Origin: Siderastrea radians | Lineage: Eukaryota > Cnidaria > Anthozoa > Scleractinia > Rhizangiidae | DNA: 64,000 bases | Direction: 5' to 3' | Assembly (NCBI GenBank): GCA_964017195.1 | Contig: OZ024888.1 | Location: forward strand, 11,913,701-11,977,700 | In this document: positions 8,503 through 40,100 of the stretch, one piece after another | Position numbering within the stretch: position 1 is the first letter of the stretch | How the letters are laid out: each line of letters opens with the position of its first letter | Translations under genes and position numbers: made by a program | The notes under the pieces: model-generated | Database searches by the model: none | What the model saw: the letters and a program-made list of their open reading frames with translations, nothing else | What the model was told of the DNA's origin: nothing

Positions 8503-8964
8503 CTACGGTGAATGAGAGCAATAATCTATAGATTTAATCAAAAATAACTCATTTATTTGCAAAGCAAATGTGAGATTTGCCGCCAGGAAAAGAAGATGCT
8601 GGTGGAGAACAACGAAAACCTTGGAGCAAATATGACAACATCAATGATCAATGCCAAGCCAGTTTAGCTAATTCTCAATGAAAAAGTAAAACTGGAATTA
8701 ATACTTTCGGGACGTTCTACAGTTCACACGCAGTAGAAAGTGAACAAACTGAAATCGATACAAAATCATTTAATAGCAACGATTTGAAAAGTTAACCAAA
8801 TGTTGGCATTACCATATACGTTACCAGAAACTTCTGAGTTTCTGTCGTTACCTGATTCTTTACTTTATTTAATCAAAATTCGATGATTAACTCAAAACAA
8901 AAAGTTTCGTTTGGAGTAACTTAGTGTGTGTTTTAAAATTGAAGCAGGTTTTGATATGACTTAC

Positions 8965-9639
8965 TTTGTACGACAAGACTCGCAACTGTCTCTTCCCTTC
9001 CCAGAATGTTACGCGCCACGCATTTATATTTCCCAGAATCCTCAAGCCGCGCGTCCTTGATCTGAATCAGACCTTCTGACGTCACCTTAGTTCTGTTGCT
9101 AGGTAACGTTTCATTCACTCGGCACCGAGCTACTTGTGGAGCGGGATTTCCCGAAGCAGAGCACAGTAACGAAGCAGTGTTGCTTTTGTTCACAGTCAGT
9201 TGAGAAGTGGAAACGGTTACTTTTGGTGCAGAGATGGATTCTCCTGGTTCACCTTTCATTCCTGGAATCCCCGGTGCACCAGTATCTCCTTTAATCCCTT
9301 TTTCTCCTCTTAGTCCTGGTGGGCCTAAAGGTCCTTGCTTTCCACTTCTGCCAGGCTGTCCCATTACTCCTTGCGAACCTTTTCTACCTCTCTTCCCTTG
9401 GTCACCTTTGTCACCTTTGGGTCCATCTCTCCCCTGCAGTCCTGGCAGTCCACGAGGGCAGAAGTTCCCACTGCTGTGACACACCTTTTCAAAGTTCGAA
9501 GTCACAGCTTCCTCCAGAACCTGTTTTAGATTTTCCGACTCATTAAAAGGAGTTCTGCTGGCAAGGCTTCGTGAGAACCTGTGCAGTTTAACCTGATTAT
9601 ATGCCAGATTCTCTTCAACATGTGAGACAGCTGGTTTCT
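8965..9639 (-). CDS. Collagen-Ig gene exon 2: stalk, 24 Gly-X-Y triplets, first Ig domain
   Basis: The acceptor is CTTCCTTAG and the donor GTAAGT. The exon is 675 bp with phase 1 on both sides. After a helical stalk and a Cys pair (VCHSSGNFC), 24 Gly-X-Y repeats run from GLPGLQGRD to GEPGES. A complete Ig domain follows, with Cys in LLCSASGNP and in the [11 protein letters not shown] motif. Trimerisation through the collagen stalk is expected. Confidence 0.8.
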
Positions 9640-11098
9640 CTAAGGAAGCAAGTAAATAAGTATCAATGACAATGAAATTTTGGAAAGCATAACTGTTTAT
9701 AATTTCAATATTGGGTTGAACATAAGATTCTACTGATGAAATCCTAAGGCTGTTTGTTTGTTTGTTGTTGTTTTTTTTAGCGACAACTAAACCGTAAGGT
9801 GGGACAACTGACAGATGAGTTTCTTTGTTCCTTAATTTTGATTATTAGACAAGTTCACTAAGAAACCGTAACAAAAGCCGTGAAGTTGTGACTACGTTGT
9901 AAGATATTTGGTTGCCACCGATAGTCAGGTAAAACTCAACTCAACTCAGAAGTTTCTCGATGTACACTGCAGAGTTTGACAAATTCGCCTTGCAGAAAGG
10001 ACAAAAACAACTTAAGAGAAAAAGACAGAATAATGCATAGACTAACAACCACGCGGCCCTCATACAGACACAGTTGAACCATATTTTCACACTTCATGTA
10101 GAAGTGGTACAAAACTCGAGGAGGTTGTACAAAACTCGAGTCACTAACGCCATATTTAAGAATTCTATTTTCATGAATTCTTGAAATATTCTTTAAAACA
10201 AATATAATTTTAAGATAAGTGTTTCTAGCAACAACTTTGTTAGCACTTGCCAACACAAACCAACTACTCAGAGAAACGAAAGAGATCTACAACAAAGTAC
10301 TAATTTTCACTTAAATTGCCATGCTTCATCAACAGACCAAATGAGGAAAGGAGGGCATCAGCTTTGTCTCGAGGTCCATACAATAAAAAAAAGTAATAAA
10401 AGAAATAAGAAATGTATTTTTCCCCTCCAAGAATTCCGATTTGATATGATCCACTCACATTGATAAAGGGATTCACATTTTTTTTGCAAGTAAATGCAAC
10501 CCGTTGAGGGAGTTTCATCAAAATTATGACATCTTGTTTCAATCGCTGTTAAAAAGTTTTATCAACCGAGGCGCCAAAGTGTGAAGTTTTGAAGAACATA
10601 AACTTTATTATCTATGAAGAAAGCAGAAAAAATACACATTACTAGAGAATGTGTGAGTTTCTCCCTCTCTAATCTGACTTCATTCGTTGGGGGCGGGGAG
10701 GGGGGGAGTTGCAGTTGTTTTCAAGAGCGTGAAGTCATAACCTAAAAAAATATACAATATATCATACGCTATCTCAGACTTACCCTTCAAACTTTTCCAT
10801 ATTTGGGGATCAAAATGACGAAAATATTTCCTTCCTTTTAGACTAGTATGCAAAACATACCTTATTTGAGAGCTAAAGCAGCTCTAACTTAAGAACGAAC
10901 TTGATGTTATCTCCTCCCCCCCCCCCCCCCAGGCCCACTGAAACCCGTTCTTCTCCTCCAGAACCTCAATAACTCCTTTAAAAAAAGGTAAAGAGTCTTT
11001 TGCATTAAGTATCTGATTATGTCCGATGTTATTAAATGCAAAATACAAACTCAATTGAGGAGACGCCTATGTTGAGTGGAAAGAAATCTAAACTTTAC

Positions 11099-15652: not shown

Positions 15653-18600
15653 ATGGCTCCTAAAAATATTAACTTTAAGTTATTGTCTTTAAATGCTCGA
15701 GGGATTCGGTCTTTTGAGAAACGGAAGGCATTGTTTGGGTGGTTAATGAAAAATAATGCGGATATTTGTTTTTTGCAAAGAATCATATAGTACTCCTGAG
15801 GTGGAAAACGTTTGGAAATCTCAATGGAAAGGGGAAATGTTTTTCTCTCATGGTACGGTCCATAGTAAGGGTGTCCTCATTCTTATTAAAAATAACTTGG
15901 AATTCGAACTGAAACCCTCAAAAATTGACAAAGATGGGCGTTTTATCTTTATAGAAGCAAAGGTTCAGGAATATCCCTTTCTTTTTGTCAACCTTTCTGC
16001 CCCAAACAAAACGAACGAGCAATTAACCTTTTTTGAAGAATTCAGACAAGAACTGGACAATTGTTGTTTAGAGGAAGATTGTAATATTGTTATTGGTGGG
16101 GATTTTAACGCTATTTTCGATCCCGATTTGGATGGTAATGGCGGAATTCCAAAACGAAAAGAATCAGTTAAGAACATAGAAAGCATATGTATTATCAATG
16201 ATTTAGTTGATATATGGAGGGTTAGAAACCCAAAGAAAAAACGTTTTACTTGGCGTCAGAAGACTCCTGTAATTCAGAGGACAGGGTCTGGAAGGGGGGG
16301 TCCTGATCCCACATTCCCGCTCCTTTTTCACGAGAATCCCGCATCCCGCACTTTTTTCTTCTCTATCCCGCATCCCGTTTTTTCTTTCCCAAAAATACAT
16401 TTAAAAAAGACTAATTTCTACAAAAGCTAATAAATTTAAGATGTATATTCGCCCTTTCGATTGATATTTTGCACTCGCCTGGTTGATTCGCTTTTGCCGC
16501 TAGAACGTTTACTTGGGTCGAGGCGATTTCCCGAATTCCCGACAGACAAGCAAAAAAATCTCGCATCCCGTGCCCAAATTTTGGCGAATCCCGCTTCCCT
16601 GGTAGAAGTCAAATCCCGAATCCCGTCAAGATATTTTGCGTTTTCCCGAATCCCGCACCGTATTTTGGCCAAATCCCGGATCCCGACAATACCCTTCCAG
16701 ACCTTGAGAGGAGGCTGGACTACTGGCTTGTAAGCAGTGGTATGCAGGAGGATATTGATAATGTTGATGTCATTCCATCGCTTAAATCCGACCATCCCGC
16801 AATTGTGCTATCTCTGAATGGAATTGAAAATGGACCCCGTGGTCCTTCTCGTTGGAAGCTTAATTCTAGCTTATTGGATGATAAGGAATATGTGTCTTTG
16901 ATTAATACGAAATACCCATTATGGAACGATGAATTCAAAGAAGTCAAAGACCCAAGGCTTTTTTGGGATCTGATGAAGTACAAAATTCGCCAAGAAAGCA
17001 TTTTTTATAGTAAGATGAAGCCAAAAGAGCGAAGGTCAAAAATGGCAACTTTAGAGTCAAGACTTAACGACTGCCAAAAAATGTGTGATCAAGATCCCTC
17101 ACCAGAAAATATGAACATGTTTGAAGTCATAAAAACAGAGTATGAGCTCCAGAATGACTACATCACCCAGGGGGCAATAATACGAACTCGAGCCACCTGG
17201 TACGAACAAGGTGAAAAAAGCAGTAAATATTTCTTAAATTTAGAAATTCAAGGGGTAAAAAAAGTTCAATTCGGAAATTACTTAAAGATGACGAATCTTT
17301 AACTTCAGACCCTAAAGTGATTATGAAAGAACTTCGTTCCTTTTATTCTGATCTCTACCAAAATAAGTCCAATGAAAACAGTAATGCCTTGACAGATTCA
17401 CTTCTGAGTAATGTACATATTCCTAAATTAACTGTGGAACAAAGGAACAGATGTGAAGAAAAATTAACGGTAGGGGAATGCTTTAACACTTTAGAAAACT
17501 TTTCAAAAGAACAAAGCCCCCGGAATGATGGTCTCACGGTAGAATTTTATTTAGTGTTTTGGCCGCTTTTGGGCAAACACCTGATCGATTGTTATAATTA
17601 TGCACATGAACATGGCGAGCTTTCCAGTTCTCAAAAACAAGCCGTAATTACTTTGTTGGAAAAGAAAGGCAAGGATAAAAGGTTGATAAAAAACTGGCGT
17701 CCTATTTCACTTATCAATGTCGACGCTAAAATCGCTTCCAAAACGTTAGCCAAACGACTGGAATCAATTTTACCAGAGTTAATTCATTACAATCAAAATG
17801 CGTACGTGAAAGGAAAGTCGATTTTTGACGCGGTAAGAACCATTGATGATATTTTGGAATACACCAAACATAAGAAAATGTCGGGCATTCTTGTTGCTAT
17901 TGATTTCGAAAAAGCCTTTGACTCTCTTGATCATACTTATCTTTTAAAAGTTCTGCACGCATTAAATTTGGGCCATCTTTTATCCAATGGATCCGTACTT
18001 TGTACTCAAATATATCAAGTTGCATCATTAATAATGGCTTTACATCAGATTATTTCGCAGTTGGTCGTGGCGTGCGGCAGGGAGACCCATTATCACCTCT
18101 TCTCTTCATATTAGGATTGGAAATTCTTGCATGCAGTATTCGACAAAATGAAAACATTCAGGGTATTCAAATTGATAATTTGGAGGGAGGTTAAAGTGTC
18201 AGTTTTTGCGGATGACCTGGCTTGCTTTCTCCGAAACAGATCCTCCTATGATTGTTTACAAGATTGTCTTAGTGCTTTCTCGAAGTGTTCTGGTCTAAGA
18301 GTCAATGAGGAGAAGACTGAATTTTTCAGTATAGGCATAAGGAAATTAGAGCGTGAAATGCACCCTTATGAATTTAAAACTTCCATCAAGATTCTTGGTG
18401 TGTACTTTGACTACAATAACGTATCGAGGAATAAATCCAACTTTGACTCTGCCCTTAAATCAATTAAAAAAGTATTAAATATGTGGAAGTGGAGAGGTCT
18501 GACGCTCATCGGCAGAATTCAAATTGTTAAATCTTTCGCCATACCCAAAATTATGTCCAAGGCTGGTCTAATTCCATTGTCAAGTGAATTTATTAAAGAA

Positions 18601-19860
18601 ATTAATAAAGAACTTTATTCCTTTATCTGGAAGGGCAAAGATAAAATCAAACGCTCAGCCTTAATTAATGACATAGAGGATGGAGGTTTGGAAATGCTGG
18701 ATCTTGAATCTATGATCTCTGCTCAACGAATCATTTGTCTGAAGAAATACACTGAGAATTATGAAAGTCCCTGGAAGTATGGTCTGGATTTTTATCTCAA
18801 GAAAGTTGGCGGGAAATTTTTATTACATTGTAATTTTGATTGTCGGAAATTATCCATTTCACTTCCTGTCTTTTATAAGGAGTGCTTACAAGCCTGGTCT
18901 TCTAGTAATAATTATGATTCGTCAACCTATAAAGGGATAATGAACCAAATTATCTGGAACAATAAGTATATTTTGAGTGAGGGAAAATCTATTTTTCAAC
19001 CGATTTACTATAAGCAAGGAATTCTTAAGGTTGGCGATCTTGTTTCGAAGGAGGGTATTTTTCTCCAAAGTGACAAAATTCTCAGTTCCTCTTTATCTCC
19101 TAGTTACCTCTTTGCCCTAATGGGGGTTATTGATGCTATCCCAAATGAATGGCGTTCTATAATTAAAACAAACCCTTATTGTGCTCCCTCTCCGTTGGAT
19201 CAAACTTGTTTTGTATTAACAATCGCTGGTAAAACGATTGACCTTGCTAATATCACATCCAAATTAGTTTATAGGGAATTTCGTTCTTTTAAGCAGACTT
19301 CAGCCACCACTAAAGCTAAAATTTTGAGTAAATACCCGGATCTCTCCATAGACTGGAAAAGGTTATATTCTTTAGCCTTTGAAACTACTTTGGATACAAA
19401 ACTCAGAGAATTTCAATATAAATTGTTAAATCTTATTGTTTTCACCAATAAAAAACTTTACCAGTTCAAAATGGTGGAATCCCCCTTATGTGTTTTCTGT
19501 AATGAAGAAGAGGAATCCCTGGAACATTTATTGTATTTTTGTAAGTCATCAAAATTCTTTTGGAAAGAACTCTTATCTTGGCTCGCAGATGAAACCAATA
19601 TTTTGCTTAATGTCTCTCATCTGGACATTCTTTTTGGAAAATTTGACCTTGGCAAAGATTTTCTCTTTGTTAATCATATTATTTTGCTTGCTAAATACTT
19701 TATCTACAAGTGCAAACTTTCCAAGGCCACTCCATCACTTACAGTCTTCAAAGCTAAGTTAAAGGCAACCTATAAGTTGGAATTATATATAGCAAAAAAG
19801 AACAGAATTCTAATTAATCATCATAAAAAGTGGGATCACCTTCTCTCCTGGCTTTCTTGA
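15653..19860 (+). pseudogene. L1-like ORF2 (endonuclease, reverse transcriptase), interrupted
   Basis: Begins ATGGCTCCT with the endonuclease start (LLSLNARGIRS). The endonuclease continues after a 1-base insertion near 15778 and shows VIGGDFNAIFD. A MITE sits at 16281-16703; excising it restores QRRLDYWLVSS in frame. Single-base losses near 17250 (in an A-run), 17970 and 18185 break the reverse transcriptase, whose motifs are NWRPISLINVD, VAIDFEKAFDS, GVRQGDPLSPLLF and FADDLACF. The C-terminal finger is CVFCNEEEESLEHLLYFC. The stop is at 19858-19860. The domain order is clear, but the reading frame is not functional. Confidence 0.85.
16281..16703. mobile_element. hAT-like MITE inside LINE ORF2
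   Basis: The left end ACAGGGTCTGGAAGGG and right end CCCTTCCAGACC are inverted repeats. Flanks TTCAGAGG (16273-16280) and TTGAGAGG (16704-16711) form an 8-bp target duplication with one mismatch, as for hAT elements. The interior is a run of ATCCCGCA/CCCGAATCCCGC phrases. Removing it restores the LINE reading frame, proving it is a later insertion. Confidence 0.75.
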
Positions 19861-28100: not shown

Positions 28101-31100
28101 ATAAAATCCTGAATAGTTCAAGCGCTTTCTCTCGGTGAGAAGTTTATTTACGTTGAATTATCTAATTCTAGCATTCAACTTTGAAACGTTTCTCGCAAAC
28201 CTGGTCTCCAAGTATAAACAAGCGAAACGTGACTAGCACTGCCGTACAGCTCGCAGCTGATCCACTCGCCACTGCAACAAACAAGACAGTGCGAAAACAG
28301 AAGCGTCTTCATCGATGTCGCTTCCATGGAATATTCTCTTGTACGAAACTGACAGTAAGTTCCATGAGAGATTAGCCGTTCACCGCTTACTTTCCCCCGA
28401 CAAAATACACAAATTTTGCGAACTATTTCGAATACGTTGATCGTCGATCGGAAATATTTATTATGGCGAACACCGCTGTCCACGTTTTGACTGGTCCGCT
28501 TTGCAAGTTGTGAGAACATCGTTTCTCGGTCCCAGGCCTCGCTTCTATCCCCCCCCCCCTGGGTTCACCTTTACGAATTCCTCTTCAAGCAAACACCCGA
28601 TTTCCATACCATTTTTACCAAACTTCTCGGTTAAAAGTCAAACTTTGAAGCGATCCTTGTCTTGAACAACTCAAAATGCGTTTTTCGTTTCAGGACGCCT
28701 ACAAAATGCCAATCAAATGCGAGTAATTTTGGCGCTTGGCCAATCACGAATTAGTAATTTTGCCCTCGTCCGAAAGAAAATTAAGAAAAAATGCCCTCCG
28801 TCTCAACCAATCAGCATTCAGTAATTTTGCCCTCTATGTTATAAGTTTAAATAAAAGCATTTGAACAGAACGTGATATTGTTTCTTTCTTTTTTTTGGTT
28901 CATTAAAAAAAACACTTAAAGTGCCTATGAAGTAAAAAAAATTTTTGCGTGAATTTCTACCTTATAGTGCCCTTATTCCAAAACGGCAAAAGAAATTTGC
29001 TGGAAAAAAATTTAAAAACCTTTTTTTGGCGCCGAAAGTCATTCGAAATGGCCAAAATTGTATCGCCGGAGACTGGTAACTAGTTTGGCTCTGATGACGT
29101 AGTTGGTGGTTCCAGAGATTTGTTTACACTTAGCATACTGTTGCTATTCAGTGAAGTTCACCACTGTTTTCGAGATTTCTAGCTAAAATTTGGTCGACAA
29201 TTCGCAACGATGTCTAATAGTGACGATATGCTGTCTTCTGCGGCTTCTTCAAGTCAAGAAGAATCGTACGACAGCGACACGTCCGCTGAAATGGAAGTAG
29301 TTGGACGTGTCCAACCTTACGCCGACGAGCCACTCGCTCATTCAAGCGACGAAGAAGAGGACTTGGAAGCTGACCAAGATGGTCTTTCGCCCGCAGTTTT
29401 GTGGTCTAGATTTGAAGGAGAAATTACTGTGGATGAATGGTAAGTACCTTTGTTATTTTTACGAAGAAGGTTAGCAAAAACCCTGGCCAAACGAGGACGA
29501 GAGACGACGATCGAGAGTTGAAACTCGTGGAAAGCTTACCTACGAGTCAATGAAAGTTCATGAGGAGAAACAACTGTCGGAGTTTCAACTTAAATAATCG
29601 ATTACAAACTCTTCGAGAGGGCACAACAGTTGCCGAGAGTGTCTGGGATTTTCAAGCTTGAGATATCCGAGATTCGATGCTTGCGATAGAATTGCGCTTA
29701 CAAATGCACACGTCTGATTTCGTCTCATTTCATTTTTGAGGTGTTCATGCGGAGAATGTGCTGTGGTAAGTCTCTCAGACGCGCTGGAGTATAGGTGCTG
29801 CAGGGAAATAGCACAGGCCAACCAGAAATTGACATTCGATGGGAGTATCGAGCATGTAAAATGCATAACAAAACACGGCGACTTCCCCGCCATGACAAAC
29901 AGGAGTGTTCTCCTACAAGTGGCTCCACTATTGAGAGACAAAAATGGAAAAGGATACCGTCGTCGCGGTGGACAAACAGAAAACCAGTAAGTGTCTAAGA
30001 ATTTGAAATATATTGTAGCTCAAGGCTGACATATATAAAATTGGTTACGGATGCTTTGTGTCTTGATTATGAAAGGGTCACACGACGTCTGTATATATGG
30101 CCTCCAATTTCAGTCCAGATTCACTTTTTGTTATCGCAGTCCTACTAAAACTTCTTATATTTAATCTGTTATCATCAGGTATGTGGTAAATGATCAGAAA
30201 TGCAATAAGCAACCAGCTAGTCCAAACCAAAATCCTCTCAAGAAAGATACCAACACCAAAAATGCAAAAATGTTGAAGAAATAGTTTCACTTTGCATTAT
30301 CCCATGTCATTAGTCCTGATAACTAATGATATTCACAGTGTACTTGTTTTATGACTGTGGGTGGGTGTCTTTGTTCTCAGCTTTTTGAGATGTTTTCAAA
30401 TTGTTTTTTTTTGTTCAGATTTGTGAGAGCAGTGGCATACAGATGGCTTGTCCGTTGGATTTGTGGTTATTTGGGGTGGGACAACACAAGACCACTTCCA
30501 GCCTGTGTCTACCACAATCTGAGACAGAAATTTCCATCTGGTCATGTGCAGGGTTACCAGTCTGCAGGAGAGAGAAGTTAAATGGTTCTGTCAAGGACAT
30601 ACAGTGTACTCTATTTTATTCAAGTTTCTTTTGTCAAAGAGACAACGTACATCAGTTTCATGAACCATCTTTGGATGCCAGTGGTTCAAAAAAGTATGGC
30701 TTAACTTGCAAAGGTTATTTCATAAAAAGAAACACTTGTTACATTCATTTGCTTGTGGAAATCTATTGTGAACTTTACTATGTTAATAACAGCAGTTTCC
30801 TTTTGGAATTGTAAAGACAAAATTGTACATTTTGGAACTTTGCACATACATCTAAGCATTTTTAATTATTCACAAGCAGAACTATGTAGTAGTCTCATGA
30901 ATTTTTGCTCAGGTTAGACTACGAGCAGTCTCTCTTTCCACTCAGAAACAAGCAAGTGACCAAGTACACAAATCGCCTGTGGTGTCGAAATGTGATGTGT
31001 GCCAGCCTGACACATGTCACATTTCAACTCGTTACAAAATTTTGTGCTTGCTCACTTTAATGTTTGTTTTCCTACACTATTTCCTCAGTGGAAAGAGAGA

Positions 31101-34100
31101 GTGGTTGTAGTCTATGTTTGAGTTTATTGGTTACATTATTTTTATTATTTTACCAATACTGAGGTGTATATAATAAAATGTCATTTATTTAATTTATTTG
31201 ATTTGATTAGAAGTGAATTTTACTAGACATTTTGCAGCCTTCACTCAACAGCAATAAATCACTAATTATCATGCACACTAAAGGTCAGTGTGAGGACTTT
31301 GGCTCTTTGTCTTTGAAACTATTTACTGATTACTGATTTGATTTACAGGCACTAGCTTTGTGGCCCTTCATTGGCTTGCCACATGTGCGGCATTTTGCAG
31401 GCTGTCTGGCTCTTTTCTCTCCAGCTTGCACAGTACTTGAAGTTGCTTGTAAGACATCCTGCTCTTCAGCTACAGAAACAATGAAAAAACAATGGGCATA
31501 TTTTTAAATAGCTTATAACACACTTTTAATTTTGATCAGAACACATGCTTTTATGAAGGGAAATCAACCAATCAAAATTTGAGGATAAATTTCTTGTCTC
31601 TGAATTACATCAGCACAGCCACCATAAGACTTTGAGCAGTCCCTCTTTTTGCTCAGGGAGAGTATTTGGTAGATTTGGCAACCTGAATGATCAAAACACT
31701 CAAAAAGTGCAGGGAAACAGGACCTCTTTATCAACACAATAGCTTTTCCAGATCTTTGTAATTCTCTGACCTAACCTTGCAGCAGGTTATGTAAGTGAGC
31801 AAGACATTTTAGTCAAGTGATAACGTGCATTTGAAAATGTATGTTGAATTTGTGCAATGCGAATAATGATTATTTATTATTAATTATTACTTCACCTGCA
31901 GGGTAGAGGTTTGTTGTCTCTCTTTCCTTTCTCTGTGTGTACTGATCAACAGCAGTGGATTTCTTCACACGATCTGGGAATTGTGAGTTGAGTGGCTGAG
32001 GTACTTTGCTGTTATACCTGTCAGCCACACTCTTAAGCTCTTCTTTAGTCAGGTTTAGAAGATCCCTCCGTATCTCTTCAACATAACCTACCCAGAAAAT
32101 AGATTTGTGAATTTTGTGTTCCTATTGGTGTTTTCATATATAACTAAGATCAACCTACATGCAGGACTTAGGACACTTATGTCAAGCTAAAGTACTGTTC
32201 ACCAATGCAACTGTAAAAAAATAAAGTTTATGTAATGTCATGAGTTTGTGTGTGTGACCTTAACTGACAAGATCGCACAGTATTGTGTAACTTACCATAG
32301 GTTGGTGGAACAGCAACTTCCCTCACCACTTCCTCGCCAAGTTTAAATTTTGGATAGGTGACTTTATAATATGCATCACCATCATCAGACTGTTGAGTTT
32401 GTCTGAGCACGTTCTCATTAAAGTGAAGGGAAGCAAGAATGTGCCTGGAAGCAAACAAGACAAATTAAAGAATGTGCCAGGCCATTGACTTTTATTTTCA
32501 TTTTGCCCTCCCATCTTGGTTAGCCTGTTTGGAAGATTTCTTGCAAGGCATGGGTTATTATTGCCCCTCAAGGCCACAGTCTGGAATTATTTAAAAAGGG
32601 GTACAGAGTGAAAATACAGTTGGTTGTGAGACTGCAGTGGGAGGTCGCAGGTCAGCAAAATAAGTAATGTGAAAACATTTGACTCCAAATTACATGCTTC
32701 ACTGGAAGTAAAGCTTATTACCTGCAAAATGTTCCTAACCAGGAGAAGCAGACCATCTTTGGATGCCAGTGGTTCAAAGTAGAATGAAATCCCTCCAGGC
32801 AACTGGTCTGGGCATCTGGAGACAGCTTTTTTATGTCACTTATTAATCCTGTATTCATTAGGAGCTTGTGTAGTTTGTTGTATGCATTTGTCCCTGGGTT
32901 AAATGATAAAGAAAATACTGTAAATGATGGCATGTATAACACAGTGAGAGTTGAACCTTTTATCATTGGATGGGGGGGGGGGGTAATGTATCACAGTAAA
33001 GGAATTGGGTAACTTGGTGACAATATGGGGAATGTGGGGTCCTCCCTCAATACTTAATTATTGTATTTTTAATATATTCCTATTCCTATTCTAATCTGCC
33101 TACAGTTTTCAATATCTTCATGGGCACACTTCTTGAAAAGAGGGGGGGATAGGGGGTCCTCTCTCATTACTTTATTATAATTGTTAAATACCTATTCGAA
33201 TCCACCTGCGGTTCTCAATATCTTCATGGGCACACTTCTTGAAAAGAGGTGAGGGATGATTTTCATGCCTGTTAGCTACATGTTCCATGAAGGACTTCCA
33301 CTTTGCTACAATCATCTCGCCAAAACCCTGCTTTGTGGATGTTGCACACCAATAGAGGTGATTGCGGGCTCCCTTTACCCAATCTGCAATTTTCTCGCAC
33401 CCCTTTTCTTTTCCTAACTTGACCATCTTCTTGGTGATGGATCGAGCAATGTGCCAGATATCAAAATAATGAGAGCACCCGGTCTGGTTCTCTCGGATCC
33501 ATTTGGCAATGCCTCTATGCCGGTCAGATATAAACACTGCTATTTTCAAGCCAACAGATTTCAGATATGAAAATGCACGCTTTGCTCCTTCCAGCTCCAT
33601 CGGAGAGCTGCCACCAGTCTCATTTGCCTGTGATTTGAAAAAATAATATTCAAAATAAGCCTGACCAGTACAATTGGGGGGGGGGGGTGGCTGTGGTGTA
33701 GTGGTTAGCACATTGGACTTCAGATCTGAAGGTTGGTAGTTCCAGGCCTAGTCTTTGCCATTGTGTTGTTTCCTTAGACCAGAAGCTTTACCCAACATTG
33801 TGTATATATGGGTACTGGTGACATACTGCTAGGGGTAACCCTGCGATGGACTAGTATCCCATCCGGGGGGAATAGCAATACTCTCAGTTGCTTCATGGTA
33901 TAGGAACTGGGATAAGCTCTGGCCATGTGGACCTCCTTGTCTCATGTGCGACTTTATCATACCTTATAACCAGTGCAATTATGGCATGCCCAAAAGCAAA
34001 CATGTGCATAATGTCAAAAAAGGGTATGTGTTATAACCTAATTTTCTCAAACAATAGGAATGATACCAAGTTTAGACCCTTTCAACTGCATAATAATAGT

Positions 34101-37100
34101 AATAATAATAACAACAACTGCATTGCTTGAACTTGACTCACTAAACCAGATTATGACAAAAAAATTTTTTGAGAGCATGTTTTATATTCCCCATTATCAC
34201 ATAGCATTTATTTAATTGAGGAGAGAAAACATTTTTGAGATAAGAAAGGAGGCCCGGTGGTGGATATCTTATAATCAAGATTTACCTGAAGAAGCTCAAA
34301 ATGTACCACTTTAAGAATAGTGTTACAGAACATGCTGTAGACACCATATTTGGCACTGTGGCCCATTGAGTCGAAGCGACCATCCCCACTCCAGACAACA
34401 TTCTTCAGGTTCTTGACTTCTGCAATTAGGGTTGCTTGGTAACGTTCCCAATACTTTAGAACAGCAGGAAACAAAAAATTCTTCTGATGAAAGAAGAATG
34501 TCCTGGCAGTAAAAACAGACAACCCCATGTGCCTGAAGACCAGCAGAATTTTGCTAATGGAAGCTCCAGCCATTAGCACAATGAAGCTCAACAAAACATT
34601 TCCTGCTGGATATCTTCCATTAAACATCATGGGCTGCGACCTCCATGTAAATGAATCATCACGACAGCTCAGGCAATACTGCTTGACAATTACCATGGTT
34701 CCCCTCTGTGTCATGGTCACTTTAGGATTTCTTTCCTTGCATTTGAAGCAGAATAAGGAGAACAGGCCAAGAAGATTGGTAAAGAAAACAATGAATTTGG
34801 GCTCCTCATAGCACGGTGTACCAGGTTCAACCCTAAAAATGAAATTCATAGCAAGGGTTAAATTTGCAATAGATAATCAATTAATTGTGAACAAGGTAAT
34901 ATAAGAAGCCTAAACTGGCACTAGTGCTTATAAAATTCTATCTCCTCAACAAGCTTAAGAATAGCAAAATAGGATGCTTTTAGATGACATTAGAAGGCCA
35001 TCTACCACTGTGATACAGACAAGTATTACTGGAAAAAATTACAAACAAGCTACAGGAGAACCACAGGCCAGGAAGCAACTGAGTGTAATATTGCTTTTAG
35101 TCTGCCCCTAGATGGGATGCTAGTCCAGCAAACACTGCACCCTTAAGTTTAATTTCTTTATAAAGGAACAGCATGATGGTATGTACCAGGTCTGAAATTA
35201 CCAACCTCACTGTATTACTTGACTCAATGCCATCCTGCTCTTCTTCACTCTGTGATGAATAGTCCTCCGCAGATGGAGCACTATCCTCATGTGGAGCCCA
35301 GTCAGTCTCCTCAGTTTCAGGAACTTCAATCTCTGGTACTTCCTCCTCCTCCTCAGCTTCAATGGCTGCCTCTTCCTCCACAGGGTCAACATCAGACTCT
35401 GTCTCCACATTCTAATTTTACAGCAAAAAATTACCTTGTTACAAAATATGTTTTGTTTTGTTTATTTGTGTTTTGTTTGTAATTTTAATTTCATAACCCC
35501 AGATGAGGGAAATGTGTAACTTTTAACCTTTGCGAACATTTATTGCAATTTCATGAAACAAATTCCCCCCTAAAAAATACACCGAATTTGATGTCATGAA
35601 ATTTTCCTATGATATAGTAAGCACAAAATCAATTAATCCTGCCACTTCATTAGAAATTAGCATTTATATTAGCAATCAAAACGAAATATCTAAAAAACAT
35701 ACCTGGCTATTTTTGACCTCCTTTAATTCCCTCTGAATTTCAGCATACCGCTTTTGGAGGCGGTTAAATTTCCTCTGCAGGGAGCATGAGCTATAGGAAA
35801 CATGGAGTTCGAATCGAAAGTTGTTTCAAGGAAACAGCTTCAATAAAATTATCACGTTACCGTTAGTTCTGTTGTTCTGTGTCTTTGATTTCTACATCAT
35901 CTTCTGCAAATATCCCTGTTTCTCCCCGATTCTCTGCTGAGTTCGATGGTAGATGCTTGAACCACCCGCCATTTTGAAATTCCCTCAGTCCCAGTTCTAC
36001 CCAGCTAACTGGAAATAAACCTCTCCTGTGAAGCCACTGGGTAGGAAGCACTTGGGCCGTTGCTAGGAGATTTGTGCCACTAGCCAATCGTAGGGCCGAA
36101 AAGACAATTGCTATTGTTTTTCAAATTCGTCTTTAGCTGGTAAGAGCAAAAATAACTTTCCAGTCCCCTGCTAGCAAACATATGTGAGAAAAAGTCGACT
36201 CTCCCCACAAGGCAAGAGTCGGAAACGGAAATAAAATTTTCTTGTCGGGTCTTTTCTGGGAAACTTTTAGGGAACAGTATTATATTGCATTTGCCGAATT
36301 TCGGAGCAGCTGTTGTCTCCCCGAAGAAGCTAGCAGTCACAAAAACAACATACAACATACATGTATTTGTTTGGCCGAAAACAAAAAGCATTAATTTTAC
36401 CATAGAACACAATTTGAAGGTTACATTCCGGGGACGAAAACAGAAGAAGCATTATTTTATAGCCGAGCGCCGAAAGCGAATATTTTGTTTCGTCTCGCTC
36501 TCTGCGCTTGGCTAAATAAACGCTTGTAAGGTCTTGTAATGCAGGCTATCCGAACAGACAGTTTCACTGAAACCATCTGTTCTTGCAACTGCTGATATTA
36601 GGGAGGTGAATTGTCTTAGCTGGGGCAATTGTTTTTCCTCCCTCGTAGTTAACCCGTCGTTTCTTCGCTACAATCGTTCCCGGGAAAGCGGCTCTCAAAA
36701 GACTTCCAAAATTGTTTTTTTTTATGTCTCTGGCAATGCTCCTCGACCTTAACATGAAAATAAAGTGTTTGTAGGCTTCGTCCACACTAATTCCATGATT
36801 TCCCGGCTGATCGGAACAGTTTTCCTTCTCGACAACGCAAAATAATTCTCGCAATATAAAATGGACGTTGAGGTTTTGATCAGCGAGTACACAGGCTCGA
36901 TTCGTTTCGAAAACGGGAAATAAACCCGAAAGTAAATATCTCCTTCACACTGTAAGCGTAAACTAAAGTTAATAATCAAATACGAAAGAACTGGCCACTG
37001 ATGCGATCTGGTTTTCAACTAAAAATGAATTTAAGTTTCGCAATTTGATTCTACTTTTTGAATCTCCGAGAAAACCCCTGAAAGAAGAACCAAGATAGAA

Positions 37101-40100
37101 CCTAATTTGAATTGCAAATTTTAATCCGTTGCACGACGACCTTCCATATATGGAAGTCCGTCGTGCAATGTTCTTACGAGCTCGTGACGATAGCCTGGCA
37201 AAGATAGCCTACCCACTCGCTTTAGGGGTTTTTGGTAAGCTGAGTAGAACTGGGACTGAGTGAATTTCAAAATGGCGGGCGGTTTAAGCATCTACCATCG
37301 AACTCAGCCGCTGAGAGAATCGGGGAGAAATAGGGATATTTGCAGAAGATGATGTAGAAATCAAAGACACAGAACAACACAACTAACGGTAAGGTGATAA
37401 TTTTATTGGAGTCTCGACATCTTTCAGCGCTGTTTCCTTGAAACAACTTTCGATTCGAACTCCATGTTTCCTATAGCTCATGCAGGGAGCGCTTTGACTT
37501 TCTGGTTTCTATACATTTTCCACACTGTGCTGAAGGAGGCACAGAACCAGGAACAGATGATACAGATGACAAAGATGGGGTGGTAGAGTCAGAGTGAAGT
37601 GGTGTTGAGAATGTGGTGTCTGCAGATGTACTTGGGCCAAAGGGTGTGCAAGGGGTGACGGAACCAGAGGAGTGAGGAGTTGTACATGTAAATGGGGAAC
37701 TTGGGCCCCATGGTGGACTAGCAGTGGAGGAGTCTGGAGGTGTGGAGTCTTCTTCGACAGTGACACTGATGTCACTGAAGTTGTTGCTTAACCTTTTCTT
37801 CTTTGGAGGCGGTTGATGTTTAGACTGAATCTCTCTCATGATCTGAAAGGTAAGCGTTGTTTGTAAGACATGTTGAACTTTCTGTTCAATCATACTAGTT
37901 TATGTGTTTCCTTCTAAAACACACTAATTAGAGAAAGAAGGTATTACCTATCAACCCAGTGAATAAAATGTTTTCGAAATAACACAAAACACGGTTTGTA
38001 AATGTTAGCTTATCAAATGCCAGGGAGAATTATGAACATGGTTTTCTTGAGTGGCGCTATAGCTTATTTACTCGTGACTGGTGAACTTTCTATAAGCTTT
38101 ATAGCAAGATGTTGAAACAATATACGCTTGATACCTACTTTCTTATAATTATTAGCGTATAGCACAATTCCTCACTCACCTTTTCTGTATTCAAGAGTAC
38201 AGCTATTTTAATTACGAACAATACCATTACTCGTTTCTCAATAAAAGCTGGTAAAAACCAACTGCCTCAGCTGCCTCAGAAATGAGGGCGCTTTTTACCT
38301 GACAATAACACGTGCTGTAAGAAATAGCAATAGATGCTCACACTTACGTTTCGTTTCTTTCGGGCAGTCAAAGGAGATTTGTATGGCACCACAATATCCT
38401 TTGTAGGCACAGAACCGGGAATCAAATTCTTCTTGAGCTCAATGGAGTGGCCGTGTTCGTTTGTCACAAGGACTGGCTTGTGCTCAAAACAACTTTCCTC
38501 AAAATGAGCTGAACATAGGCACGATGACTTCTTCGGCTCGAAATCTTTTCTGTGGAGACGGACAAATTGCGTCCATTTCCACCTCACACTTTCTTCCTTG
38601 GGGAAGTAATGCATTGAAATACCTGGTGTGCCAGTTTTATTGGCACAGTTGACTTTGTTAGGCCCACCGGCCGAGCAATAGTTCACGCCGCCTTTCTTTC
38701 CCTTCTTCTCCGCCATGACACTCGTGTCTTCAGAACCACCAACTACGTCATTTCCGGTGTAACGTGAGAGTTTTGGCCGAGCGCAAGATGGCGACACTTC
38801 CAATCGTCAAACGCGAAACTTTAGGGCCGGAAAATCGCTACATAAAAGAGTTTCTACTCGACCAAAACCGAATATTTGGGATAATAATGACATAAACAAA
38901 CATATCAGGTAAACTTAATTTTTACTTCATAGGCACTTTAAAAAATATTCACTTGTTTCAAATTTCAGTGCTTTTGCATTGCTAATAAAAGGGACAAATG
39001 AGTAACGGATGCAAAGAATGGCTATAGTACTGTCCTTTAATTTTTCCCTAGCGAGGGCCTGGGTTGTATCATTAATTAGGGAGAGTCCTGTGTAAGTAGA
39101 ATAAGGCTCGAACTATAGAGTCGGGTGTAGTGATTTCAATGGCAAGTGTGTACTACTTTGTCTCTCATCCCGGCTGTAATTCTCTCGCTCTTTATCTGTG
39201 GGGTGTCCTCTACATCTGCATTATTCTGGTATTCACAAACCCAGAGAATAAAACAAACAAACAAAAACAAAACCAACGCTGTCAGTTCCTACATTACATT
39301 CTTAAATTCATTTTTGTGTTATCAGTTAGAATAGTCAACAATTATTGATCGAAGTCGAGGTTAGACCCGAGCAACACATTGTTTTTGTCTTTTGTTTTTT
39401 CGCAGGTTCAGAATTCGCGAAAATCGTGTAAAGTTGACCAGTTAACTGAATTTTTACGGGTGAGATTTTAATAATGTTCCTTAAGACACGTGCAAAAACA
39501 GAGAGCAGTGCAAGGCTCCCCAAAACCAAAAGCACAATAAAACGTGAAAATGCGTGCAGTTACCAAAAGAAATGTAAAAAGCAAAAATTTGTGCAGTTAG
39601 GAAAACAAGTTTAAATGAGTTGATTTGGGAGCAAATTATCACTGTATTTTTTTTTTATCATCTCAGGCAAAGGAGTCGGGTTCCAAATTCGCGATCCTGT
39701 ACCAAAGCGAACTGAAATAACGGAATTAAAACTAACGCAAAAAATTAAAGGCATCGGTAAGGTTAAGGTCAAGGTCAAACGGATTCAACATCATTCAATA
39801 TTGCTGAATACAACTTTGTTTTGTTTTCCGACGTTGAAAGAGGCGGTCAAACAAATTTAACATTGTTTTCCCGCACCTAAGAGCAAAAGAAACTTGAGCC
39901 AACGTCACTCAACAGGGTGCATGATCAATGCGTTTTAACATGTTGAGTTCTGCAACGTTCAATGGTGTTGAATGGAACCTTGTCGATCCCGTTCCTCTTA
40001 GGCCTAGTACTGCCTTGAACATCATGTAAAGAGAACGGTTTTGCTCTCAAAAATATTACTTGAAGTACAAAACGATTAACAGCGGTATTCCCAATAATAC

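What the first reader, a model, noticed from the sequence alone, without database searches (positions are those of the whole stretch)
28920..38937. A 10-kb TTAA transposon that carries a P2X7-C-like gene next to its transposase
Perfect 19-bp inverted ends flanked by TTAA enclose two convergent spliced genes: a THAP/DDE transposase and a complete 212-aa protein with the WCxCGxC...CCREI...P-x-C-V signature of the P2X7 cytoplasmic domain. Known Kolobok-type elements are defined by the transposase; I know of no description of this second gene as standard cargo. If other copies share it, the domain may be a transposon accessory factor. Its expansion in cnidarian genomes would then be partly transposon-driven, and the P2X7 tail might have a mobile origin.
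Basis: partly seen in the sequence, partly recalled or inferred. Interest (0 to 1): 0.88.

Follow-up and report, generated by a model that had tools for sequence, protein, structure and literature searches.

The report
Coral Kolobok transposon with KolX gene
This is a coral-like jumping-gene element of a known type that carries, next to its transposase, a gene related to the tail of the human P2X7 receptor; that pairing was described in 2022, so the find is a well-preserved new example rather than a discovery.

Summary
A 10,018-bp element (28920-38937) has perfect 19-bp inverted ends and TTAA on both sides. It holds two convergent gene models with introns: an open 212-aa protein with the P2X7 ballast domain (Pfam P2RX7_C, 1.5e-8) and a THAP/DDE transposase.

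The novelty claim is wrong. Kojima & Bao 2022 (PMC9587614) describe the second gene, KolX, in the Kol0 lineage of Kolobok transposons, list cnidarians among hosts, and derive the P2X7 tail from KolX.

Checks here agree. The predicted KolX fold ranks P2X7 chains first among solved structures. Seven cysteines are kept in 40 of 45 rows covering the domain. KolX and transposase carry neighbouring gene names in five other genomes (5 of 48 named rows), so it is not a one-off passenger.

KolX's function is unknown; I favour a zinc-stabilised transposase partner. Bolder and untested: it brings guanine nucleotide to the transposase.

The parts
28916..28919 (.). TTAA target-site duplication, left
28920..28938 (+). 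19-bp terminal inverted repeat, left (begins AG = 5'-RR)
29094..29112 (+). subterminal 19-bp perfect inverted repeat, left arm, 97 bp upstream of the KolX ATG; holds a TGACGT core
   Evidence: I8; core motif read by eye, meaning recalled
29210..29439 (+). KolX exon 1 (acidic N-terminus with PYxDEP motif)
29741..29986 (+). KolX exon 2 (WCxCxxC, CCREI, CIT)
30419..30581 (+). KolX exon 3 ([13 protein letters not shown]) to stop
38348..38716 (-). transposase exon with THAP domain
37484..37842 (-). transposase exon, part before the nested insertion (the last bases lie in the 9-bp duplication)
35777..35785 (.). 9-bp target-site duplication GCAGGGAGC of the nested element
35786..37481 (.). nested MULE-like element with long inverted ends, inside a transposase exon
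   Evidence: superfamily by recall only
37482..37490 (.). second copy of the 9-bp duplication
35703..35783 (-). transposase exon continuing after the insertion (coiled-coil-like by eye)
35206..35411 (-). transposase exon (acidic linker)
34286..34832 (-). transposase exon with first catalytic Asp (GDGRxDS)
33192..33627 (-). transposase exon with second Asp (SDRH), DxWH and H-x4-H-x10-C-x-H
32722..32893 (-). transposase exon with catalytic Glu (CLEGFHS)
32296..32444 (-). transposase exon
31896..32087 (-). transposase exon
31330..31469 (-). transposase last exon with C-terminal CxxC...H...C, to stop
38733..38751 (-). subterminal 19-bp perfect inverted repeat, right arm, 16 bp upstream of the transposase ATG
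   Evidence: I8
38919..38937 (-). 19-bp terminal inverted repeat, right
38938..38941 (.). TTAA target-site duplication, right

Best explanation
It is a two-gene Kolobok DNA transposon of the Kol0 type in what is most likely a coral genome (nearest named proteins are coral; the species is not known). Shown: TTAA duplication, inverted ends, a THAP/DDE transposase model with the Kolobok signatures, and an open KolX gene whose protein is predicted to fold like the P2X7 ballast domain. Shown: this copy's transposase gene is interrupted by a nested element; inferred: the copy moves only if another copy supplies transposase. Inferred: KolX is a transposition accessory protein, a zinc-stabilised module with an acidic, probably disordered N-terminus that acts together with the THAP transposase (end pairing, nuclear delivery or stability) rather than cutting DNA. 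KolX-like domains were co-opted by hosts (P2X7 tail, Nanor), as Kojima & Bao proposed.
Against: No Pfam transposase family passes its cut-off: the best is Mutator PF20700, E 0.0013, 18.2 bits against 26.5, for one ORF, and none for the joined second piece; the DDE reading rests on the alignment. No Foldseek row passes E 1e-3 (best 1.8e-3). By sequence alone P2X7 is weak: E 2.8 from one sequence, below two unrelated chains, and 0.057 by profile. 43 of 48 serially named KolX rows have no such neighbour in the lists; near numbers suggest, but do not prove, adjacency. No functional data on KolX in any call. Other copies in the same genome could not be examined. No Repbase Kolobok reference was at hand.
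Confidence: 0.92

Rival explanations
1. Accidental passenger: a host P2X7-C-like gene was trapped once between the ends in this genome.
For: Only one copy of the element could be seen (blastn of the element against the rest of the window found nothing). 43 of 48 serially named KolX rows show no transposase neighbour in the lists.
Against: Neighbouring gene names in five other genomes, four of them named and from Cnidaria and Chordata, and the published Kol0 definition.
Confidence: 0.02
2. The KolX gene here is kept by the host as a domesticated gene while the transposase decays.
For: KolX is open while the transposase is interrupted. Domesticated relatives are proposed in print (Nanor, P2X7).
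Against: Apart from the insertion the transposase pieces also have no stop and canonical splice sites, so the element looks young as a whole. KolX lies inside the ends, with a 19-bp subterminal repeat shared upstream of both genes.
Confidence: 0.05
3. KolX serves the element by acting on the host (for example on silencing or nucleotide-sensing pathways) and not on transposition itself.
For: The P2X7 ballast holds guanine nucleotide and zinc in an immune receptor (PMC9859053, passages). I see no nuclease motif in KolX (by eye; Pfam listed none at E up to 1).
Against: No direct evidence. Accessory proteins of other Kolobok lineages are nucleases and a helicase.
Confidence: 0.2

Closest known systems
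Kol0 lineage of Kolobok transposons (transposase + KolX); Kojima & Bao 2022, PMC9587614
   Same: TTAA duplication, 5'-RR/YY-3' ends, DDE transposase with D/CxxH and a zinc-finger motif before E, and a second protein homologous to the P2X7 ballast with seven cysteines; cnidarians are on the published host list.
   Different: Nothing essential seen. This copy is 10 kb with many introns and its transposase gene is interrupted by a nested element.
P2X7 receptor cytoplasmic ballast domain (PF20478; Rump et al. 2020, PMC7016195)
   Same: Predicted fold and the seven zinc cysteines; two GDP-contact arginines (rat R546, R578) line up with KolX R162 and R194.
   Different: No channel part; H547 and K583 of the GDP site are not kept (0 H of 53, 1 K of 52 covered rows); KolX has an acidic N-terminus with a PYxDEP motif.
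Xenopus Kolobok transposases (PMC6004289)
   Same: THAP + DDE + H2CH motif (passages).
   Different: That paper's main text does not mention KolX (0 occurrences).
P element (PMC7776569)
   Same: THAP domain, coiled coil, DDE catalysis, subterminal inverted repeats inside the ends (passages).
   Different: 8-bp duplications; the GTP site lies in the transposase itself; KolX is not among the features in the passages seen.

Membership tests
Kolobok superfamily | TTAA target-site duplication | tested here: met
   TTAA at both ends
Kolobok superfamily | termini 5'-RR ... YY-3' | tested here: met
   AG...CT; rule from PMC9587614
Kolobok superfamily | DDE triad with C/DxxH between second D and E | tested here: met
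   D246, D313, DIWH 334-337 (D, W, H invariant), E457 invariant in 17 sequences; no Pfam transposase model passes its cut-off
Kolobok superfamily | zinc-finger (H2CH) motif between C/DxxH and E | tested here: met
   H394-x4-H399-x10-C410-x-H412 invariant in 17; motif named in PMC6004289, zinc finger at that place in PMC9587614
Kolobok superfamily | THAP DNA-binding domain | tested here: met
   PF05485 E=4.1e-12, exon 38348-38716
Kol0 lineage | second protein KolX with P2X7 ballast similarity and seven cysteines | tested here: met
Kol0 lineage | transposase groups with Kol0 references in a tree | not testable with these tools
   no Repbase references at hand; in a tree of 31 rows (30 of 111 hits, hand-picked) the window and the four linked copies included fall in one group of 14 (100/98, midpoint root)
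P2RX7_C / ballast domain | fold of P2X7 residues about 393-595 | tested here: met
P2RX7_C / ballast domain | GDP/GTP site residues | tested here: inconclusive
   R162 in 50 of 53 and R194 in 47 of 52 covered rows; equivalents of H547 and K583 not kept
KolobokP | long terminal direct repeats | tested here: not met
   longest direct repeat shown is 67 nt and internal; 20 largest of 36 families shown
KolobokP | His-Me finger nuclease gene | tested here: inconclusive
   no such Pfam match in the nine proteins scanned; the rest of the element was not scanned

The most novel reading that the evidence does not exclude
KolX is a guanine-nucleotide-binding cofactor that works in trans for a THAP/DDE transposase, doing what the built-in GTP-binding domain does in P-element transposase; the GDP/GTP site in the tail of P2X7 would then be a relic of a transposition cofactor. 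The ancestral synteny reported for these domains across animals (PMC7016195) would partly be the transposon's own second gene.
Probability: 0.08. Interest if true: 0.75.

Novelty: new member of a known kind. Interest (0 to 1): 0.33.

Why it matters
The idea that a vertebrate immune receptor got its intracellular tail from a transposon is striking but was proposed in 2022. This copy adds a complete KolX gene model with clear exons, and the cross-genome linkage and predicted-structure match found here agree with the idea. It also offers a protein pair for testing what KolX does; the word KolX occurs in one paper of the library searched, and the parts of that paper that I read give no functional test of it.

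Tried and rejected
Own genome for other copies or the empty site: the same request was sent eight times and never answered, so copy number and dN/dS stay open. Viral and prokaryote contig collections: stretches matching six short peptide patterns (16 and 92) were found, none confirmed as a KolX relative; this was a one-sequence search, and the tool warns that records of the window's own genome may be left out. A first structure prediction with 27 sequences was poor (pLDDT 58) and was replaced by one with 82. Sequence search of solved structures was weak (P2X7 E 2.8 from one sequence, ranked under two unrelated chains at 0.29 and 0.38; 0.057 by profile), so the P2X7 link rests on Pfam, the cysteines and the predicted fold. 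Correlation of KolX and transposase identity over 15 pairs from six linked genomes: Spearman 0.54, p 0.037; the pairs are not independent, so I give it little weight. In the transposase tree the linked rows do not form an exclusive group (label needs 4 changes; 96 of 500 shuffles as low), nor in the KolX tree (5 changes; 187 of 500); many rows without a known neighbour lie among them, so the trees neither prove nor deny co-inheritance. Searches of the paper library. Papers seen: PMC9587614 outline and abstract, parts 1-3 of 6 of the text and section 16; PMC7016195 passages and section 11; PMC6004289, PMC9859053 and PMC7776569 passages only; all others search listings only.

Full report
What was claimed.

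What is there. The element runs from 28920 to 38937. Its ends are a perfect 19-bp inverted repeat, flanked by TTAA on both sides; with up to 3 mismatches the first 18 bases occur nowhere else in the window. A second perfect 19-bp inverted repeat sits inside each end (29094-29112 and 38733-38751), 97 and 16 bp upstream of the start codons of the two genes. It may be a shared promoter element or a transposase-binding site; neither was tested. P elements also have subterminal inverted repeats (PMC7776569, passages).

The second gene. Three exons with GT-AG introns give an uninterrupted 212-aa protein. Pfam P2RX7_C matches with E=1.5e-8, above its cut-off. A one-sequence search of 5.8 billion proteins found 69 relatives; of the 26 rows whose name gives a species, 25 are cnidarian and one is a lancelet (counted by eye; group membership recalled). 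A profile search found 267, of which the best 120 were listed. In an alignment of 82 proteins the seven cysteines that line up with the conserved ones of P2X7 are all present in 40 of the 45 rows that cover the domain; 37 rows do not cover it. A PYxDEP motif lies in the acidic N-terminus: the pattern Y.[DG]EP[LIA] matches 49 of 82 rows, 74 of which cover the place. I saw no mention of it in the parts of PMC9587614 that I read.

The transposase. On the minus strand a THAP exon and eight exons of the catalytic part can be read with canonical splice sites and no stop. Pfam gives no transposase family above its cut-off; the best is Mutator PF20700 at E 0.0013 for one ORF, none for the joined second piece. 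Over 17 proteins the DDE triad, the DxWH motif and the H-x4-H-x10-C-x-H motif are invariant. These are the Kolobok signatures of PMC9587614 and PMC6004289. 111 relatives were found.

A nested insertion. Inside a transposase exon lies a 1,696-bp element (35786-37481) with long inverted ends and a 9-bp duplication GCAGGGAGC. The length of the duplication and of the ends recall MULE elements; the superfamily was not tested. As it stands the transposase gene of this copy is interrupted, so the copy probably depends on others for movement.

Is the second gene a one-off passenger? Unlikely. Among 48 KolX-like rows whose source name has a serial number (counted by eye), five have a transposase row with a number within 10: Oculina patagonica G023278/G023277, Branchiostoma lanceolatum Hypp6571/Hypp6572, Engraulis encrasicolus LOC134437285/LOC134437278, Rhopilema esculentum LOC135692765/LOC135692760 and eukprot gene1880/gene1881. 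In the first four the listed contig lengths also agree. The other 43 show no neighbour in these lists. Near numbers suggest adjacency; the DNA was not seen.

Known or new? Known. PMC9587614 states that Kol0 Kolobok elements encode two proteins, that the second, KolX, is similar to the P2X7 C-terminal part with seven conserved cysteines, that Kol0 occurs in vertebrates, annelids, cnidarians and sponges, and that P2X7 arose by fusion of a P2X4-like gene with KolX. It also takes zebrafish Nanor as a likely domesticated KolX. KolX as a word occurs in a single paper of the library.

How it works. Shown: the parts and their conservation. Inferred: the transposase binds the ends through THAP and moves the element into TTAA, as in related families. 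KolX, found beside it across animals, most likely acts in the same process as a zinc-stabilised partner. A role in bringing guanine nucleotide to the transposase is a bold possibility, since P-element transposase needs GTP and the P2X7 ballast holds guanine nucleotide, but the loss of part of the nucleotide site speaks against simple conservation.

Side results. The lancelet and anchovy elements are 73% (KolX, 205 columns) and 74% (transposase, 501 columns) identical and lie among cnidarian rows in the transposase tree, next to a Rhopilema row (99/97, midpoint root). In the KolX tree they group with Branchiostoma belcheri (100/99), and a moray eel row groups with Nematostella (97/93). That fits horizontal transfer of the two-gene unit, or old lineages kept patchily; not pursued further.

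Noticed in passing
proteins P0023/P0090 (Branchiostoma lanceolatum) and P0189/P0085 (Engraulis encrasicolus): KolX and transposase of a lancelet and an anchovy are 73% and 74% identical and lie among cnidarian transposases in the tree: candidate horizontal transfer of a two-gene transposon.
   Followed up: partly
window 30664-30698 and 32752-32786: A 35-base piece of the transposase exon with the catalytic Glu is repeated (91%) downstream of the KolX stop, so that a KolX transcript reaching there would be antisense to transposase mRNA (D4).
   Followed up: no
window 33082-33148 and 33188-33254: Tandem duplication of the end of a transposase exon, spacing 106 bases, 87% identical (D1).
   Followed up: no
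window 35786-37481: Nested MULE-like element with long inverted ends and a 9-bp duplication; its longest ORF lying wholly inside is 126 codons stop to stop, and its ORFs were not scanned.
   Followed up: partly
window 17227-19860: Non-LTR retrotransposon remains: RVT_1 in two ORFs and zf-RVT in one.
   Followed up: no
window 8933-9841: Host-like gene piece with collagen repeats followed by an immunoglobulin domain.
   Followed up: no
PMC7016195, Figure 6 as described in its text: The paper reports an ancestral synteny of ballast-domain genes with two markers, and an Ixodes protein joining a domain printed as TAHP (presumably THAP) to the ballast domain; both may be Kolobok linkage rather than host synteny.
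   Followed up: no
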